The position numbers and the translations under genes were made by a program. Source: an uncultured Caryophanales bacterium (GTDB lineage: Bacteria > Bacillota_I > Bacilli_A > RF39 > UBA660). From it: a stretch of DNA of 35,281 nt. Positions 19,083 through 35,176 of this stretch are shown one piece after another. Under the pieces are notes generated by a model. That model was not told the DNA's origin. It did not search any database and worked only from the letters and a program-made list of their open reading frames with translations. Location of the stretch: assembly GCA_946614095.1 (NCBI GenBank), contig CAMOGG010000012.1:1-35281 (forward strand), in the 5' to 3' direction. Each line of letters opens with the position of its first letter. Within the stretch, counting starts at the first letter, position 1.

Positions 19083-21179
19083 CTATACTTTCGATAATTT
19101 CTTATGATTTTTCATTAATTTTTTAATTCCATGAGGATGTTTGAAGGCTACACTTACAAGTGTGTTGGTTACTTCTACTACTTTTCCAGTTCCAAATGTA
19201 TCATGATAAACAAAGTCTCCTACTTGGTAATCTACTTCTTCTTCCCTAAACATTTCTCCTACTTCTATTTTCTTTTCTTGTTGCTTAAATTCTTCTTGAA
19301 CATTGCTTTCTACTAAATCTTTAGGAATTTCACTTAAGAATCGACTAACCGGATTAATTTGTTCTTTACCAAATAATGTACGTCTTCTGGCATTTACAAG
19401 GTGTAAATCATCTCTAGCTCTAGTAATTGCTACATACATTAGTCTTCTCTCTTCTTCTACTTCTGATGATTCCATCAATGAATTCATATGTGGAAATATT
19501 CCTTCTTCCATTCCGATGACAAATACATAATTAAATTCTAATCCCTTCACAGAATGAACGGTCATTAAGCTAACTCTATTTGGATCATCTTTATATTCTT
19601 CTACGTCACTAATCAAACTTATTTCTAATAAGAAGTCTTCTAGAGAAATTAATCCTTCTCTTTCTTCAAATGACTTTGTAATAGACTTAAATTCTTCTAG
19701 ATTCTCTAATCTAATTTCTGCTTCTAATGATTTTTCACTTTCCAAATCTTGTTTCATACCTGATGCATCAAGAACTTTATCAATTAATTCTGTAAGGGTT
19801 AAATCTTCCGCTACCTCCTTCAGCTTTTCAATAATATTTTTAAATTCTAATTCTTTACCATTAGTGATTACTTCATAAATACTTAATCCAGTCTCATCTG
19901 CTTTTCTTGTTAAGTTCTCAATTGTTTTTAGACCAATTCCTCTTTTTGGTGTATTAATTACCCTTAGTAAAGATACATTATCTTTTGAATTATGAATTAA
20001 GCGCAAGTATGCAATTAAGTCTTTGATTTCTTTTCTAGAGTAGAAGTAGAAACTACCAATTACTCGGTATGGCATATTTTCTTTTAGCATTTCTTCTTCC
20101 ATGACACGGGATTGAGCATTAGTTCTATAAAGAACAGCAATGTCTCGATATTCTATGCCTCTATGAGTTAATTCTTTTATTTTGCGAATTACATATTGAG
20201 CTTCATCTCTTTCATTGTATGCTCTATAATATTTGATTTTTTCTCCTATTCCTCTAGCTGTCCAAAGATTTTTATCTTTTCTTTGTTTATTATTTTTGAT
20301 TAAGCTATTTGCAGCATCTAAAATATTACTAGTGGAACGATAGTTCTGCTCCAAAAGAATCGTTTTTGCATCTTTGTAATCTTTTTCAAAGTTTAAGATA
20401 TTTTTATAATTAGCACCACGGAAACTATAAATACTTTGAGAATCATCACCGACACATGTGATTTTTCTATTTTTTTCACTTAATAATTTGGTTAATATAT
20501 ATTGGGCTTCATTTGTATCTTGATATTCATCTATTAAAATGTATTGATACAAGTCTTGATATTTTTTTAGTATTTCTGGATTTTTTTTAAATAATTCAAT
20601 TGGTAATAATAGTAAATCATCAAAATCTACTGAATTATTTCTTTGTAGTTTCATTTCATATTGTTTATAAACTTCATAGACTACTTTCTCATAGTCACTA
20701 ATAGCAAATCTTTCATATGCTTCTGGGGATGTCATCTCATTTTTACAACTACTTATTTTATTACGGATAGCTCTTGGATTATATATTTTTGGATCATAGC
20801 CCATATCTTTGATAATCTTTTTCACAACTGTTAGGGAATCATCACTATCCATAATGACGAAGTTTCTGTCATATCCTAGAGCATCATAATTATCTCTTAA
20901 TAGTTTTAATCCAAAGCTATGGAACGTTGATACTTGTAATTTTTTTGCAAGGGAACCTATTTGTATAAATAGTCTATCTTTCATTTCTTTTGCTGCTTTA
21001 TTGGTAAAGGTAATTGCTAAAATATTATAAGGACTAACTCCTTCTTCTTCTATCAAATATGCTATTTTTGTAGTTAGAGTCTTGGTCTTTCCCGCTCCAG
21101 CTCCTGCTATAATTAATAATGGTCCTTCATTATATAATACAGCTTCTTTTTGTCTATCATTTAACTCTTCTAAATTCAT
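19083..21179 (-). CDS. pcrA: ATP-dependent DNA helicase PcrA (UvrD/Rep family)
   Basis: PcrA is the superfamily 1 3'-5' helicase that acts in nucleotide excision repair, removes RecA and resolves transcription-replication conflicts. The 698-aa protein shows the Q motif (LNDRQKEAV), Walker A AGAGAGKT, motif II in LIDEYQDTN, motif III GDDSQSIYSFRGA, motif IV LEQNYRST, motif V LMTVHSVKGLEF and motif VI VAITRARDDL. The C-terminal segment YQVGDFVYHDTFGTGKVVEV is the tudor-like RNA polymerase-binding domain typical of Firmicutes PcrA. AGGAAG precedes the ATG. It heads an operon with the putative metalloprotease gene, and ligA lies further along in the same orientation. Confidence 0.97.
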   Translation of the reverse strand: MNLEELNDRQKEAVLYNEGPLLIIAGAGAGKTKTLTTKIAYLIEEEGVSPYNILAITFTNKAAKEMKDRLFIQIGSLAKKLQVSTFHSFGLKLLRDNYDALGYDRNFVIMDSDDSLTVVKKIIKDMGYDPKIYNPRAIRNKISSCKNEMTSPEAYERFAISDYEKVVYEVYKQYEMKLQRNNSVDFDDLLLLPIELFKKNPEILKKYQDLYQYILIDEYQDTNEAQYILTKLLSEKNRKITCVGDDSQSIYSFRGANYKNILNFEKDYKDAKTILLEQNYRSTSNILDAANSLIKNNKQRKDKNLWTARGIGEKIKYYRAYNERDEAQYVIRKIKELTHRGIEYRDIAVLYRTNAQSRVMEEEMLKENMPYRVIGSFYFYSRKEIKDLIAYLRLIHNSKDNVSLLRVINTPKRGIGLKTIENLTRKADETGLSIYEVITNGKELEFKNIIEKLKEVAEDLTLTELIDKVLDASGMKQDLESEKSLEAEIRLENLEEFKSITKSFEEREGLISLEDFLLEISLISDVEEYKDDPNRVSLMTVHSVKGLEFNYVFVIGMEEGIFPHMNSLMESSEVEEERRLMYVAITRARDDLHLVNARRRTLFGKEQINPVSRFLSEIPKDLVESNVQEEFKQQEKKIEVGEMFREEEVDYQVGDFVYHDTFGTGKVVEVTNTLVSVAFKHPHGIKKLMKNHKKLSKV

Positions 21180-21233: not shown

Positions 21234-21256
21234 TTAAAAAAAGAAGATTTTTTTAA
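21234..21256. repeat. AT-rich inverted repeat between pcrA and the RNA element
   Basis: A perfect 9-bp palindrome TTAAAAAAA/TTTTTTTAA with a GAAGA loop. It could terminate weakly in either direction or simply bend DNA upstream of the pcrA promoter. Confidence 0.4.
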
Positions 21257-21261
21257 GTTGT

Positions 21262-21290
21262 TGGACATAAATTTATTTCTTGCGAATAAT
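21262..21290 (+). promoter_or_regulatory. Candidate promoter of the structured RNA
   Basis: Plus strand: TGGACA (21262-21267), 17-nt spacer, AATAAT (21285-21290); each box matches consensus at 5 of 6 positions. The expected start site, 6-7 nt after the -10, falls on G21297, the first base of the 14-bp closing stem of the element downstream. Confidence 0.5.
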
Positions 21291-21296
21291 AATAAT

Positions 21297-21440
21297 GAAG
21301 ATATGTTTTACATGATTTTCTTTTGGGGATTCGGTTCACTCTAAAAAAGAGAATTATAAATCTTTTGACTTAAGCATATGCTCTCTTTATGCTGACATTT
21401 TATAAATAGATATTCAACTATAAAACATATCTTCTTTTAT
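21297..21440 (+). ncRNA. Candidate structured small RNA with 14-bp closing stem
   Basis: The 5' end GAAGATATGTTTTA (21297-21310) and the 3' end TAAAACATATCTTC (21421-21434) are perfectly complementary, enclose 110 nt, and are followed by TTTTATTTG. Inside, two local helices can be drawn: a weak arm around CTCT/AGAG (21339-21351, possibly extended by GATT/AATC) and AGCATA/TATGCT (21373-21393). Together with the closing stem this gives a three-way junction. A possible promoter places the start at the first base of the stem. A separate promoter for the next gene begins 7 nt after the stem, so this looks like an independent RNA and not a leader. I could not match it to 6S RNA, SRP RNA, a T-box or a known riboswitch. 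It may instead be only a DNA inverted repeat. Confidence 0.45.
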
Positions 21441-21469
21441 TTGTTATGATTTCAGTGCTATGTTATAAT
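21441..21469 (+). promoter_or_regulatory. Promoter of the amidohydrolase gene
   Basis: Plus strand: TTGTTA (21441-21446), 17-nt spacer, TATAAT (21464-21469) preceded by TGT (extended -10). Transcription would start about 23 nt before the ATG. Confidence 0.75.
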
Positions 21470-21498
21470 ATTTTATTATATTTTTTGGGGGATTTAGA

Positions 21499-22452
21499 AT
21501 GGAGAAAAGAAGTATTATTGATTCACATAGTCATATTGGATTTGATTATACATGGAGTATTCCAGGAACATTAGAGGAATATGTTCGAAAGGCTAGAAAA
21601 CTAGGTATTTGTGAAAGTTTATTAATGCCTGTTCCAATGCCAATTTTAAAACTTGGTTCTTGTGAAGTGATTCCTATTATGTTGGGAACTTATGAAGAGG
21701 AAAGTTTTGTTGTGCAGGGAGTTTATGATTCTCATGGTTTGCGACCAATACCTCTTTCTGATAACCCTTATCGTTATGTGAATGAATTACTTTATCAAAA
21801 TATTTTTCATTTTCATGATTGTGGAATTGATTTACATTTTGTTCCGTTGATTCATCCCTTATTTGATACCAATGATTATCTTGATGAAGTCATTGAGAAG
21901 TATCATCCTGTTGCCATCAAGATACATGGTTATTCTAGTCTTTTTTCTCCTTTGGAAATATCTCCAGATTTTTTTCGGATTATTCAACAATATGATATTC
22001 CTATTATTATTCACACGGATTGTGATATTGATACTGACTCTGATTCCTTAGATACTTATTTACGTAATGAGAATTCTCCACTTAATTGGATTAAAGTACT
22101 AGAGCCATACTCTATTCGAACTTACTTAACACATGGGGCTCGTTTATGTGAAAAAAGTTCTACTATTATCAATGAAAATCCTAACTTTGTCGTGGGGTTA
22201 GGTCCAGATTTATTACTTTCCAATTGTCAGGATAGACTGTATTCTGATGATGAATATTTAAAGACTTTATTTTCTAGAATTGATAGTAATAAAATCTGTT
22301 TTGATTTAGATTATCCTTGGAATGTATGTTCTTATGATCAAAACTCATTAGATTGGAATTCTCTAGAGCGAATCGAAACTTTAGGACTTACTGAAGAAGA
22401 AAAAGAAAAAGTTTATTCCAAGAATTCTAAAGCTTTTTTTCACTTATTATAA
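21499..22452 (+). CDS. Amidohydrolase family metal-dependent hydrolase
   Basis: A 317-aa TIM-barrel protein of the amidohydrolase superfamily, closest in look to the amidohydrolase_2 (ACMSD-like) group. Likely metal ligands and catalytic residues occur in order: the HxH of DSHSHIG near the N-terminus, the strand with AIKIHGY, the His in IIIHTD, the His in LTHGAR, and the Asp in ICFDLDYPW near the end. It has no signal peptide. GGGGGATTTAGA precedes the ATG. It is a single gene with its own promoter, divergent from pcrA and convergent with the surface operon. The substrate is not predictable; decarboxylases and lactonases also occur in this group. Confidence 0.83.
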   Translation: MEKRSIIDSHSHIGFDYTWSIPGTLEEYVRKARKLGICESLLMPVPMPILKLGSCEVIPIMLGTYEEESFVVQGVYDSHGLRPIPLSDNPYRYVNELLYQNIFHFHDCGIDLHFVPLIHPLFDTNDYLDEVIEKYHPVAIKIHGYSSLFSPLEISPDFFRIIQQYDIPIIIHTDCDIDTDSDSLDTYLRNENSPLNWIKVLEPYSIRTYLTHGARLCEKSSTIINENPNFVVGLGPDLLLSNCQDRLYSDDEYLKTLFSRIDSNKICFDLDYPWNVCSYDQNSLDWNSLERIETLGLTEEEKEKVYSKNSKAFFHLL

Positions 22453-22480
22453 AAAGAAGCATTCTTAATGAATGCCTCTA
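22450..22480 (-). terminator. Terminator between convergent amidohydrolase and surface operon
   Basis: Stem GCATTC/GAATGC with a 5-nt loop (22459-22475). On the minus strand it is followed by TTCTTTTTAT. It mainly serves the minus-strand operon; on the plus strand no T-run follows. Confidence 0.65.
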
Positions 22481-23535
22481 TATAATCTTTCTAATTCTGT
22501 CATATTATCTTCTAACTTTTTATCTTCAAATTCCTCTTTGGCTTTTTGTAACTTTAACATTTCTTGACGTAAAGATTCTTTTCTTTCTTCTTCTAAACGA
22601 ATGATTTCTTGTTTTTGTTTTTCTCGATAATCCATTTCTTGATGATTCATTATCAATGGAGTATCCGAAAATTCCTCTCTATCTATTTCCTCTCTTGTCT
22701 TTTGGCGAATTAACATTTTTAAAATTCTCTTGTAGTCTTCTAATGTTAATAAGTTTTCAAATTCTTTCGTTAATTCTTTTTCTTTTTGAATTTCTCTTTC
22801 TAAATCCATATTCGTTTTCTTCTGGGTGATTTGTAATTCATTTTCTCTAACATTTGCTTTTGGAATTTTACCATATAACCAATCTGGTGTTTCTTTTGGT
22901 TCGTAATTCTCTGGTAATTTTTTTATTTTCTTTTTGACAATTACTTTTCTTACTTTAGGCTTATAGTCTTTTTTTATGTAAATTAAAATTAATTTATATA
23001 GTATTAAGAAAATAATCCATACGATAAAAATAACACTAGAAAGTTCTATTAAAGCAGTTGTTTTCTTATTTCCATAAATGGAACCTTGACTATAAATATC
23101 TAGGTTCTTTTTACTAATAACACTTAAGACTAAAAAAAGTATATAGTTCATAATCACATAAATTATACAATTCAGTTTTTTAATATATTCTGATGTCTGA
23201 AAACTAAAAATACTAATCCATACTATAATGTTCATAATGATTAAAGCTGCTAAATAGATTGCAATATTGGGAAATAATATTGCAATAAAGAAATTGTTCA
23301 TCATATAGTCAAATATTTTTCCTAAAGATGTATGATAAAACAGTAACATGCATATAAGGATGAAGATAGAGACACCAATATATATCTTTTTATTTCTCTG
23401 TATGGTTCTTCTGTTTGTTGTTGAAAAGATCATTCCTAAAATAATCAATACTAATATAATTAATAAGTATAAATAAGAACTTTGAGACATCTTGAAAAGA
23501 ATGTCTATCTTCTCTAAAAAAGACATTTTGCTCAT
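22465..23535 (-). CDS. Polytopic membrane protein with charged coiled-coil tail, sortase operon
   Basis: A 356-aa protein I cannot name. The first 190 residues contain about five hydrophobic membrane segments (LYLLIILVLIILGMIF, IGVSIFILICMLLFY, a long pair near 83-115, VIMNYILFLVLSVI, SVIFIVWIIFLILYKLILIYI). After a basic stretch (KPKVRKVIVKKKIKK), residues 210-356 form a highly charged cytoplasmic tail. Its last 80 residues (KQKQEIIRLEEERKESLRQE and on) are predicted coiled coil. It lies 25 nt after the sortase gene with GGGGGGTGAAG before the ATG and is the last gene of the operon. It might scaffold or regulate the sortase at the membrane, but this rests on position alone. Confidence 0.8.
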   Translation of the reverse strand: MSKMSFLEKIDILFKMSQSSYLYLLIILVLIILGMIFSTTNRRTIQRNKKIYIGVSIFILICMLLFYHTSLGKIFDYMMNNFFIAILFPNIAIYLAALIIMNIIVWISIFSFQTSEYIKKLNCIIYVIMNYILFLVLSVISKKNLDIYSQGSIYGNKKTTALIELSSVIFIVWIIFLILYKLILIYIKKDYKPKVRKVIVKKKIKKLPENYEPKETPDWLYGKIPKANVRENELQITQKKTNMDLEREIQKEKELTKEFENLLTLEDYKRILKMLIRQKTREEIDREEFSDTPLIMNHQEMDYREKQKQEIIRLEEERKESLRQEMLKLQKAKEEFEDKKLEDNMTELERLYRGIH

Positions 23536-23560: not shown

Positions 23561-24220
23561 TTATTCTTCTATATTGATTAATTCTGCAATATATATTGTT
23601 TGTGTTGTGGAATCATTGTTGGTACAAGTAATTAATGTCAAAGTAGTTTTACTATAATCACGATAGATTGCTAGTTTACCTGTCTTTGGTTGTGTATAAA
23701 TATTAACAATGTTATACACATACTTTTTATTTTTATAATTAATATAGGCAGTATCATTAATTTGCAATTGATATAAGTCATTAAAAAACGCTTTCCAACC
23801 GGTACCGGAATGACCAGCTATAATGAAGTTTCCTTTTTCTTTATCTGGATAATCGGAACCATTTACTACCAATATATTCTTTTCAACATCATTCTCTGAA
23901 GAACGATAATCGAGGAATCCTTTGGTTAGATTAATTTTTGGTATTGTTAAATATCCAATGTAATCGTTTGTAATAACCTCTGGCAATTTTTCTTCTTCTT
24001 GTACTGGTTTCTCTTCCTTTTTCTCTTCTTCCTCTGTAATACTTATGATTTCATTTCCCGTATAGAATGCATTGGCCATATAATCATAAGCTACAATTTT
24101 TTTTGATTGAATGTAATTATATGAAAGAAAGAATCCTCCTATTAAAGTAATGAGAGCCCCTATAAAGGCCGTTCTACTTGGAGAGATTCTTTTACTTCTT
24201 GTATTAAGCTCTTTTTCCAT
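23561..24220 (-). CDS. Sortase lacking the usual catalytic arginine
   Basis: A 219-aa sortase. Sortases cut a C-terminal sorting motif and join the protein to the cell wall. It has an N-terminal membrane anchor (TAFIGALITLIGGFFLSYNYI), a Glu-rich linker, and the sortase barrel starting at IGYLTIPKINL. The catalytic His is in IIAGHSGTG and the Cys in TLITCTNND. In characterised sortases an Arg follows 8-12 residues after the Cys at the start of the next strand. Here that segment reads DSTTQTIYIAEL with no Arg. The barrel features suggest class D or a relative. I chose ATG 24220; the track start is a GTG inside the upstream gene. The ATG overlaps the adhesin stop by 17 nt, so the two proteins are translationally coupled and the adhesin is the obvious substrate. 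Confidence 0.88.
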   Translation of the reverse strand: MEKELNTRSKRISPSRTAFIGALITLIGGFFLSYNYIQSKKIVAYDYMANAFYTGNEIISITEEEEKKEEKPVQEEEKLPEVITNDYIGYLTIPKINLTKGFLDYRSSENDVEKNILVVNGSDYPDKEKGNFIIAGHSGTGWKAFFNDLYQLQINDTAYINYKNKKYVYNIVNIYTQPKTGKLAIYRDYSKTTLTLITCTNNDSTTQTIYIAELINIEE

Positions 24221-25754
24221 TCTTATTAATATAGAGAATTCCAGCACCCATTATACTTGCTCCTAAGATATATAGTATCGTAGTTGATACTGATGCAGTA
24301 TCTGGAACAATTGTTTCTTTTGCATTTACAAATGATACCTGATGAGATTGATGCTCATCATCAATTGTAAATGATACTTTATTGGTGTTGATGACATATC
24401 CTTGTGGAGCACTTGCTTCTTCCACGGTATATGTTCCATCGGCTAAGTCTGTTAAAACATAAGGTTGTTCTGTAGTTGTAAATCTAGCTACTTCTTCTCC
24501 CTTAGAATTTTTTACTACCAAGACTGCTCCAGCAAGTGGGCTTTGTGTTTCTTGATCAACTTTTATGATATTAACAACAACTTTTTTTGGTGCATTTTCA
24601 ATTGTTACTTTTACATCTCTATTACTATCACTGATTGTGAATTTTGTAATATTTTTGTTAATTGCATATCCAGTAGGTGCTGATGTCTCTTCAATTGTAT
24701 AATTACCATTTGCTAAGTTCCTAATAACGTGTCCAGTTGCTTTTGATTCCCAATTTGCTAATACTTTTCCGTTTGCATCTTTTAATACTAATTTTGCTCC
24801 TGCTAGAGCTTGTTTTGTATTTGCATCTACTTTGGTAATTGTAACCTTTGAAGATGATATTTCAAGTTGTAATTCTGAAGAAACATCTTTTTCTATTTTT
24901 TCTAATAAAGCCACATTTTGCATACTAGAATCAACTGGTTGATATTCATATGCCATATAGCTTGCATTTCCTTTACCAGATGCTTTTACTTTAATTGATA
25001 AATCAGTAGAAGTAACACTTGATGCTGGAACTTTAATCTTAAATGATTCATTTGTTTTCATTGTAAATGCCTTTGAATAAACTGATTCTTCTCCGTTTTT
25101 TACAATCATTGTTCCTGAAGGTGCATTTTCTAATGTAATTGAATAGGAACTTAAATTTTTCATTGTACTAGCTTTAATATCAGCTGAAGTATAATAACCA
25201 TTTTGTAATACTAATTGACCATCTGTTGTTGCAATTGCTAATTTTGTATCAGTGTGTCCAATACTATCATTTCTATGATTATATCCTTCAGTCATTAATT
25301 GTTTTACATATGGTCTTAAGTTTTGTGGATCTGATCCATCTGATTTAAATTGCTCACCTAGGTTAGTGCTTCCAGTTGTTTTATCTAAATACCACCATAC
25401 TGCTGTTTGTGTAATATAATAGTCTTTTGCTTTATCACCAGTAATTTTTTTATTAGGGTAGCCATTTTTTAAAATATAAACTAACCCTCCTGTAATATTC
25501 TTACTGTTTTTAACCATTTTAGCTTTCACATTTGTAGCTGTATTTTTATGCATATTTAAACAATACAAATATTTTCCTTTTTCTGTCACTTTGTAATAGA
25601 AACTAACTCCAGCAATATAGTCCCCTGTTTTGGTAGCATTTCCTAATTGAATTGTATCACTTGCTGCTTTTACATTGAATATTCCAGTTACCATAATTGC
25701 TACCGAAATTATCATAGCTAGAAACTTTCTCATCATATTATTTACTTTTTTCAT
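24204..25754 (-). CDS. Thioester-domain surface adhesin with Cna-B repeats and VPDTA anchor
   Basis: A 516-aa wall-anchored protein. A signal peptide (FLAMIISVAIMVTGIFNVKA) is followed by a TQxA/thioester domain: Cys65 in YLYCLN and Gln116 in ITQTAVWWYLD are placed as in Gram-positive thioester adhesins, which bond covalently to host targets. After a linker region come two Cna-B/SpaA-like domains (about 300-395 and 395-480). Each has a Lys in ITKVD/IIKVD, a Glu in YTIEE/YTVEE and a terminal Asn, so intramolecular isopeptide bonds are likely. It ends with VPDTA, a hydrophobic helix and NKNGKRA. I chose ATG 25754, because the track start overlaps the GAGGGGG site. It is the first gene of the sortase operon and resembles a pilus tip or monomeric adhesin. 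Confidence 0.9.
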   Translation of the reverse strand: MKKVNNMMRKFLAMIISVAIMVTGIFNVKAASDTIQLGNATKTGDYIAGVSFYYKVTEKGKYLYCLNMHKNTATNVKAKMVKNSKNITGGLVYILKNGYPNKKITGDKAKDYYITQTAVWWYLDKTTGSTNLGEQFKSDGSDPQNLRPYVKQLMTEGYNHRNDSIGHTDTKLAIATTDGQLVLQNGYYTSADIKASTMKNLSSYSITLENAPSGTMIVKNGEESVYSKAFTMKTNESFKIKVPASSVTSTDLSIKVKASGKGNASYMAYEYQPVDSSMQNVALLEKIEKDVSSELQLEISSSKVTITKVDANTKQALAGAKLVLKDANGKVLANWESKATGHVIRNLANGNYTIEETSAPTGYAINKNITKFTISDSNRDVKVTIENAPKKVVVNIIKVDQETQSPLAGAVLVVKNSKGEEVARFTTTEQPYVLTDLADGTYTVEEASAPQGYVINTNKVSFTIDDEHQSHQVSFVNAKETIVPDTASVSTTILYILGASIMGAGILYINKNGKRA

Positions 25755-25780
25755 TGTAATCCCCCTCATTAATTTGCCTT

Positions 25781-35068: not shown

Positions 35069-35176
35069 TTCTTGGCAACGTCCTATCTTCGCATACACTA
35101 TTGTCGGCGATGAGTGGCTTAACTTCTGTGTTCGGGATGGGAACAGGTGTACCTCACTCTCTATCGTTACCAAGAA
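35069..35176 (-). rRNA. rrf: 5S ribosomal RNA
   Basis: On the minus strand the sequence contains the highly conserved 5S core CCCATCCCGAACACAGAAGT and the terminal helix CTTGGTAACG/CGTTGCCAAG. The ends given are from that helix and may be off by a few bases. The length of about 108 nt is slightly short but usual for AT-rich Firmicutes. Confidence 0.95.

What the first reader, a model, noticed from the sequence alone, without database searches (positions are those of the whole stretch)
21297..21440. Undescribed structured RNA candidate with perfect 14-bp closing stem between pcrA and an amidohydrolase gene
The two ends are perfectly complementary over 14 bp and enclose 110 nt with two further helices. 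A promoter-like TGGACA-17-AATAAT puts the start site on the first base of the stem, and a T-rich stretch follows the last base. The next gene has its own near-consensus promoter just behind it, so this is probably not a leader of that gene. I do not recognise the family. A competing pair inside (TTTTATA near 21399 with TATAAAA ending at 21425) could open the closing stem, so switching is possible.
Basis: partly seen in the sequence, partly recalled or inferred. Interest (0 to 1): 0.65.

Follow-up and report, generated by a model that had tools for sequence, protein, structure and literature searches.

The report
Decayed copy of small-toxin RNA locus
[quoted passage not shown] this copy has lost both toxin and antidote but kept its promoter and closing stem.

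Summary
In detail: the perfect 14-bp stem (21297–21310/21421–21434) is the only one of its kind in the window (about 0.1 expected), with a TGGACA-17-AATAAT promoter in front. The inner helices do not exceed chance.

It is not a stand-alone riboregulator. Promoter and 5' part (21258–21349) are homologous to four intact copies in the same genome and to well over 100 loci in relatives. Intact copies (about 205–235 nt) encode a conserved 25-aa hydrophobic peptide (nonsynonymous/synonymous rate about 0.19). The Shine–Dalgarno is held in a hairpin, the mRNA ends pair with each other (95% of cells paired, compensatory changes in 9 of 12 pairs), and the opposite strand carries a short antisense gene with promoter and terminator. 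This is the anatomy of a type I toxin–antitoxin family. It occurs in 88 of 291 genomes of one family of uncultured gut Bacilli and has no Rfam, Pfam, NCBIfam, PHROG or PADLOC match.

The window copy has lost Shine–Dalgarno, start codon, ORF and antisense terminator. It sits, beside a rare amidohydrolase gene, in an insertion between orf356 and pcrA. Best reading: a relict. Toxicity and transcription are untested. A retained ORF-less RNA function is possible but unsupported.

The parts
21258..21349 (+). segment homologous to the 5' module (promoter, start site, 5' closing arm, anti-SD hairpin) of the intact paralogues
   Evidence: 80% identity to G000:C18:22700 and 23017, 76% to C60:401, E 1e-14 to 7e-9
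21262..21290 (+). family-type promoter TGGACA-17-AATAAT (core TTGGACA-N12/13-TTGCGAATAAT)
   Evidence: scan; the exact pattern occurs 3 times in the whole genome, all in front of copies of this family; relaxed pattern 5 times, 4 of them family copies
21297..21310 (+). 5' arm of the closing stem (GAAGATATGTTTTA)
   Evidence: homologous arm in paralogues GAAGATACGTTTTA
21421..21434 (+). 3' arm of the closing stem (TAAAACATATCTTC)
   Evidence: one pair is T-A here and C-G in the C18 paralogues
21311..21353 (+). remnant of the Shine-Dalgarno-sequestering hairpin; SD (AAAGGAGGG in paralogues) replaced by AAAAAGAGAA
   Evidence: alignment with paralogues
21350..21420 (+). position of toxin ORF and antisense gene in intact copies; here no ORF and no recognisable homology
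   Evidence: local alignment scores equal to shuffles; window copy spans 138 nt against 206-234 nt in intact copies
21435..21456 (-). position of the antisense-RNA promoter in intact copies; -10 degenerate here
   Evidence: paralogue C18b has TTTACA-16-TATAAT (11/12) there; no comparable site at that place on the - strand here
21441..21469 (+). promoter of the amidohydrolase gene (TTGTTA-17-TATAAT)
   Evidence: scan
21499..22452 (+). Amidohydro_2 family gene (PF04909), probably acquired with or next to the relict
   Evidence: Pfam E 9.6e-11; absent from 39 other genomes sampled, in 4 of 243 of the family
21245..22455 (.). approximate insertion between pcrA and orf356 holding the relict and the amidohydrolase
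   Evidence: in relatives orf356 (and sortase) lie directly upstream of pcrA
19083..21179 (-). pcrA, UvrD/PcrA helicase
   Evidence: Pfam
22465..23535 (-). orf356, neighbour of pcrA in relatives
   Evidence: tblastn on pcrA loci

Best explanation
[quoted passage not shown] In intact copies a strong promoter makes a roughly 205-235-nt mRNA for a 25-aa single-helix membrane peptide. The mRNA's 5' and 3' ends pair in a closing stem of mostly 10-14 bp, a second long-range helix (UCAGAUG/CAUCUGA) lies inside it, and the Shine-Dalgarno is held in a local anti-SD hairpin, so the full-length mRNA should be translationally shut. An antisense RNA of about 75-80 nt, transcribed from the other strand from just outside the closing stem and ending at a hairpin behind the toxin stop codon, should pair with the 3' half of the mRNA and neutralise it. 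In the window copy the ORF, SD, start codon and antisense terminator are gone and the antisense promoter is degenerate, so at most a short non-coding transcript remains. It lies in a roughly 1.2-kb insertion, beside a rare amidohydrolase gene, between orf356 and pcrA. Shown from sequence: homology, coding conservation, covarying structure, antisense terminator, loss of parts. Inferred: toxicity, antisense action, transcription, and that decay rather than reuse explains the copy.
For: Paralogues in the same genome and a DNA family in 29 of 99 relatives. Peptide profile in 88 of 291 genomes of the family, up to 12 copies per genome, often tandem. 138 distinct ORF-anchored loci (one a spurious ORF), 93 distinct peptides. 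Nonsynonymous/synonymous ratio about 0.19. Structure on a structure-blind alignment of 73 diverse loci: 91.1% of cells paired against 30-53% for slid versions; 134 cells with double changes against 31.7+-9.8 shuffled; closing stem 95.4%, second long-range helix 95.1%, aSD/SD 89.4%, antisense-terminator hairpin 99.0%. Antisense terminator with U-run in 130 of 137 loci; antisense promoter TTTACA-16-TATAAT in a paralogue. 131 of 138 loci have at least 9 contiguous long-range pairs, mostly in the closing stem. Window copy: SD and ORF absent, middle region without homology. Decay is common in the family: nonsense codons in ORFs, a lost start codon, 3'-half-only copies. Insertion context.
Against: The window copy keeps a family-type promoter and a perfect 14-bp stem, one pair doubly substituted relative to the C18 paralogues, which a dead copy need not do. 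The family-wide profile does not detect the window copy; homology rests on the close paralogues. No toxicity, antisense transcription or pairing has been measured for any member.
Confidence: 0.78

Rival explanations
1. An ORF-less derivative of the toxin mRNA has been kept as a functional non-coding RNA, for example as a competitor or sponge for antisense RNAs of the intact copies.
For: Promoter intact and nearly private to the family; closing stem perfect with a C-G to T-A double change; 5' part 80% identical while the coding middle is gone.
Against: Only one such copy seen; no conservation at this site in relatives. It lacks the 3' sequence that the paralogues' antisense RNA would bind except the last few bases. 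Internal structure not beyond chance.
Confidence: 0.1
2. A stand-alone structured riboregulator or riboswitch, or a leader of the amidohydrolase gene, unrelated to toxin-antitoxin loci.
For: Strong closing stem, own promoter, lies upstream of a gene on the same strand.
Against: Homology to toxin-like loci; amidohydrolase has its own promoter; no family element in front of other pcrA genes or next to three amidohydrolase homologues; no Rfam match.
Confidence: 0.03
3. The copy still makes a peptide: the ATG at 21304 opens a 13-codon hydrophobic frame (MFYMIFFWGFGSL).
For: The frame is open and hydrophobic (read).
Against: No Shine-Dalgarno, a leader of only a few nt, no counterpart in paralogues, start codon inside the closing stem.
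Confidence: 0.04
4. The intact family is not a toxin-antitoxin system but a regulated small membrane protein with an antisense regulator; the window copy is still a relict of it.
For: Toxicity not tested; regulated non-toxic small membrane proteins exist (own knowledge).
Against: Multi-copy, patchy, tandem, frequent decay and antisense-only copies; end-to-end locked mRNA as in AapA-type systems.
Confidence: 0.15

Closest known systems
AapA/IsoA type I toxin-antitoxin family of Helicobacter and relatives (eLife 2019;8:e47549, PMC6733600)
   Same: Toxin mRNA of about 225 nt with a 5'-3' long-distance interaction, SD-sequestering hairpins and a cis antisense RNA.
   Different: Different peptide (24-29 aa, MTxRE plus a very hydrophobic helix ending mostly in K/R), different bacteria, a local aSD hairpin as the main SD lock, and an antisense gene that overlaps the 3' half of the mRNA.
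Convergent 3'-overlapping type I systems of Gram-positives (txpA/RatA, bsrG/SR4, yonT/SR6, Clostridioides CD2517.1-RCd8)
   Same: Toxin and antitoxin genes convergent, overlapping at the toxin mRNA's 3' end; small hydrophobic toxin (for Clostridia, for yonT/SR6; other B. subtilis cases from own knowledge).
   Different: No hit to known peptide families; strongly covarying end-to-end closing stem; toxin shorter.
hok/Sok
   Same: End-to-end folded, translationally silent mRNA and antisense antidote (own knowledge).
   Different: No evident mok-like coupled frame, other peptide, different antisense position.
Ibs/Sib (E. coli)
   Same: Very short, almost purely hydrophobic peptide (own knowledge).
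   Different: Sib antisense covers the whole ibs gene; no end-to-end closing stem known to me.

Membership tests
type I toxin-antitoxin system (the family of intact copies) | small hydrophobic peptide with a membrane-spanning stretch, really coded | tested here: met
   25 aa, M1 R4 E5 I12 L15 invariant in 19 peptides; 93 distinct peptides; ratio about 0.19
type I toxin-antitoxin system (the family of intact copies) | Shine-Dalgarno occluded in the toxin mRNA | tested here: met
   aSD/SD helix 89.4% paired, 4 of 6 pairs with double changes; prediction only, no probing
type I toxin-antitoxin system (the family of intact copies) | overlapping antisense RNA gene | tested here: met
   terminator hairpin with U-run on the - strand in 130/137, promoter 11/12 in C18b; transcription itself not tested
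type I toxin-antitoxin system (the family of intact copies) | peptide toxic, neutralised by the antisense RNA | not testable with these tools
   needs induction experiments
type I toxin-antitoxin system (the window copy) | toxin ORF with SD | tested here: not met
   SD replaced, no ORF, middle without homology
type I toxin-antitoxin system (the window copy) | antisense gene with promoter and terminator | tested here: not met
   no terminator and no good -10 at the expected place on the - strand
AapA/IsoA | 5'-3' long-distance interaction in the full-length mRNA | tested here: met
   closing stem 95.4% paired with compensatory changes in the intact family
AapA/IsoA | homologous peptide | not tested
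   no AapA model or sequence was compared directly; Pfam, NCBIfam, PADLOC and PHROGs gave no family for the peptides
any Rfam family | score above gathering threshold | tested here: not met
   window; 16 loci holding intact relatives, best unrelated E 0.34

The most novel reading that the evidence does not exclude
The ORF-less copy is a functional non-coding RNA evolved from a toxin mRNA (for example an antitoxin sponge), kept with promoter and closing stem, alongside antisense-only copies in relatives; that is, type I loci breaking up into stand-alone regulatory RNAs in an uncultured gut lineage.
Probability: 0.1. Interest if true: 0.75.

Novelty: new member of a known kind. Interest (0 to 1): 0.5.

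Why it matters
It reveals a large, apparently unnamed family with type I toxin–antitoxin anatomy (about 30% of sampled genomes of one uncultured gut Bacilli family, up to a dozen copies each) with very clear covariation support, so toxicity and antisense control can be tested directly with cloned loci in laboratory strains. It also explains a striking 'orphan' structured RNA as a relict and shows intact, toxin-broken, antisense-only and ORF-less stages side by side.

Tried and rejected
Rfam at gathering and permissive thresholds: no relevant hit. Family elements upstream of pcrA in relatives' loci: none. A genome-wide sigma-factor regulon behind TTGGAMA...TTGCGAATAAT: the pattern is nearly private to family copies, so rejected. 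Phage or plasmid origin: no match in viral contigs, phages or plasmids. Link of the amidohydrolase with toxin loci: none next to three homologues. Literature: the peptide strings give nothing relevant, and a type I search with RF39 as a term listed no paper holding RF39. T1TAdb could not be queried and its paper is not held.

Full report
OBSERVATION. This is the only perfect 14-bp inverted repeat with a 30–160-nt loop in the window; 60 first-order Markov shuffles give 0.12 on average. The folded stretch has z −3.57, but the 110 nt inside the stem only −1.34, so the closing stem is the one remarkable feature. Promoters TGGACA-17-AATAAT (21262–21290) and TTGTTA-17-TATAAT (21441–21469, in front of the amidohydrolase) are found by the scan, no intrinsic terminator is. 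Rfam has nothing at either threshold.

WHAT IT IS. A search of the window's own genome gave three further copies of the first 90 nt, promoter included; a fourth paralogue came with an intact copy as query. Two stand in tandem on contig 18, one each on contigs 60 and 30. Reading them shows a complete small locus: promoter, 5' arm GAAGATACGTTTT, a hairpin in which TTTTCCTTTC pairs with the Shine–Dalgarno GAAAGGAGGG, a 25-codon ORF (MTIRERSFFIIILLLFILVFILLFK), a hairpin CATCTGAGTCCTAAGGACATCAGATG preceded by an A-run (hence hairpin plus U-run on the opposite strand), and the 3' arm ending in GACGTATCTTC. On the opposite strand TTTACA-16-TATAAT stands just outside the 3' arm of the second contig-18 copy.

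THE FAMILY. DNA relatives occur in 29 of 99 related genomes. A profile of 19 peptides finds 88 of 291 genomes of the same family, 66 of 206 good-quality ones, in 62 of 150 genera, up to 12 copies per genome; in 296 genomes drawn from the class all 13 positives lie in that one family. It was not found in viral contigs, phages or plasmids. Of 138 distinct ORF-anchored loci with 93 peptides, one is a spurious ORF and was dropped for the later counts. Single-change codons are synonymous 2978 times against 1164 expected and nonsynonymous 1651 against 3465, a ratio of about 0.19: the peptide is under selection. Pfam, NCBIfam, PADLOC, PHROGs and PDB give no family.

STRUCTURE. Twenty-four full loci fold at −62 to −79 kcal/mol with paired ends. 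On a MAFFT alignment of 73 diverse loci, made without structure, 91.1% of cells pair against 30–53% when slid; 134 cells have double changes against 31.7±9.8 in shuffles. The closing stem is 95.4% paired, the second long-range helix 95.1%, aSD/SD 89.4%, the antisense-terminator hairpin 99.0%. That terminator, with U-run, is present in 130 of 137 loci. 131 of 138 loci have at least 9 contiguous long-range pairs, mostly the closing stem. The end-to-end lock is the same principle as the long-distance interaction of AapA mRNAs (PMC6733600). In many members UCAGAUG and CAUCUGA each occur twice in the mRNA, so alternative pairings are possible; this is inference.

THE WINDOW COPY. Aligned with its paralogues it keeps the promoter at the key positions (the exact pattern occurs only three times in the genome, all in this family), the 5' arm and part of the hairpin. 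The SD has become AAAAAGAGAA, there is no start codon or ORF, the 70 nt that follow resemble the paralogues no more than shuffled sequence does, the antisense terminator is missing and the antisense −10 is degenerate. It spans 138 nt against 206–234. Compared with the C18 paralogues the closing stem has a C-G to T-A double change and is perfect over 14 bp, compatible with retained selection but also with a stem that was already about 13 bp long. Other decayed copies exist: nonsense codons, a lost start codon (L074), and 3'-half-only, antisense-only copies (L010, L012, L070, L076).

CONTEXT. In most related genomes examined orf356, often with a sortase gene, lies directly upstream of pcrA. In the window about 1.2 kb, holding the relict and an Amidohydro_2 gene, stands between them, at the T-tract of the orf356 terminator; CTTCTTTTT is present on both sides. 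The amidohydrolase is absent from the 39 other genomes first sampled and present in 4 of 243 of the family. None of the relatives' pcrA loci shows a family element.

VERDICT. The stem is real and has a covariation-supported origin, but this locus is best read as a relict of an apparently unnamed type I toxin–antitoxin-like family. Toxicity, antisense transcription and the lock mechanism are inferred from anatomy and from AapA/IsoA-type systems, not shown.

Noticed in passing
A2 columns about 370-400 (for example L119, L128), just outside the closing stem of intact loci: A palindrome whose arms covary (ATGAAGTTTCCTTCAT, GCAAGTTTCCTTGAC, TCAAGTTGCCTTGACA) lies at the antisense promoter; it could be an operator or a hairpin.
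   Followed up: no
L010, L012, L070, L076: Antisense-only copies: the 3' half with antisense terminator and promoter region but no toxin ORF, possible solitary antitoxin RNAs.
   Followed up: partly
L041 about 1501-1620 (G021:C47:4296): The family-type promoter TTGGAAA...TTGCGAATAAT without the rest of the locus stands in front of an ORF that by eye resembles a C39 peptidase; possibly a promoter left by a decayed copy.
   Followed up: no
L090 and L092, upstream of pcrA: The two relatives share a conserved, structured-looking stretch (ACACAAGAGG.AAACTTGGAA...GTCATGAATCC) in front of pcrA with no Rfam match at gathering threshold.
   Followed up: partly
window 35070-35174: 5S rRNA gene on the - strand.
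   Followed up: no
window 23561-25769: Sortase gene next to a SpaA-type, thioester-domain surface protein gene.
   Followed up: no
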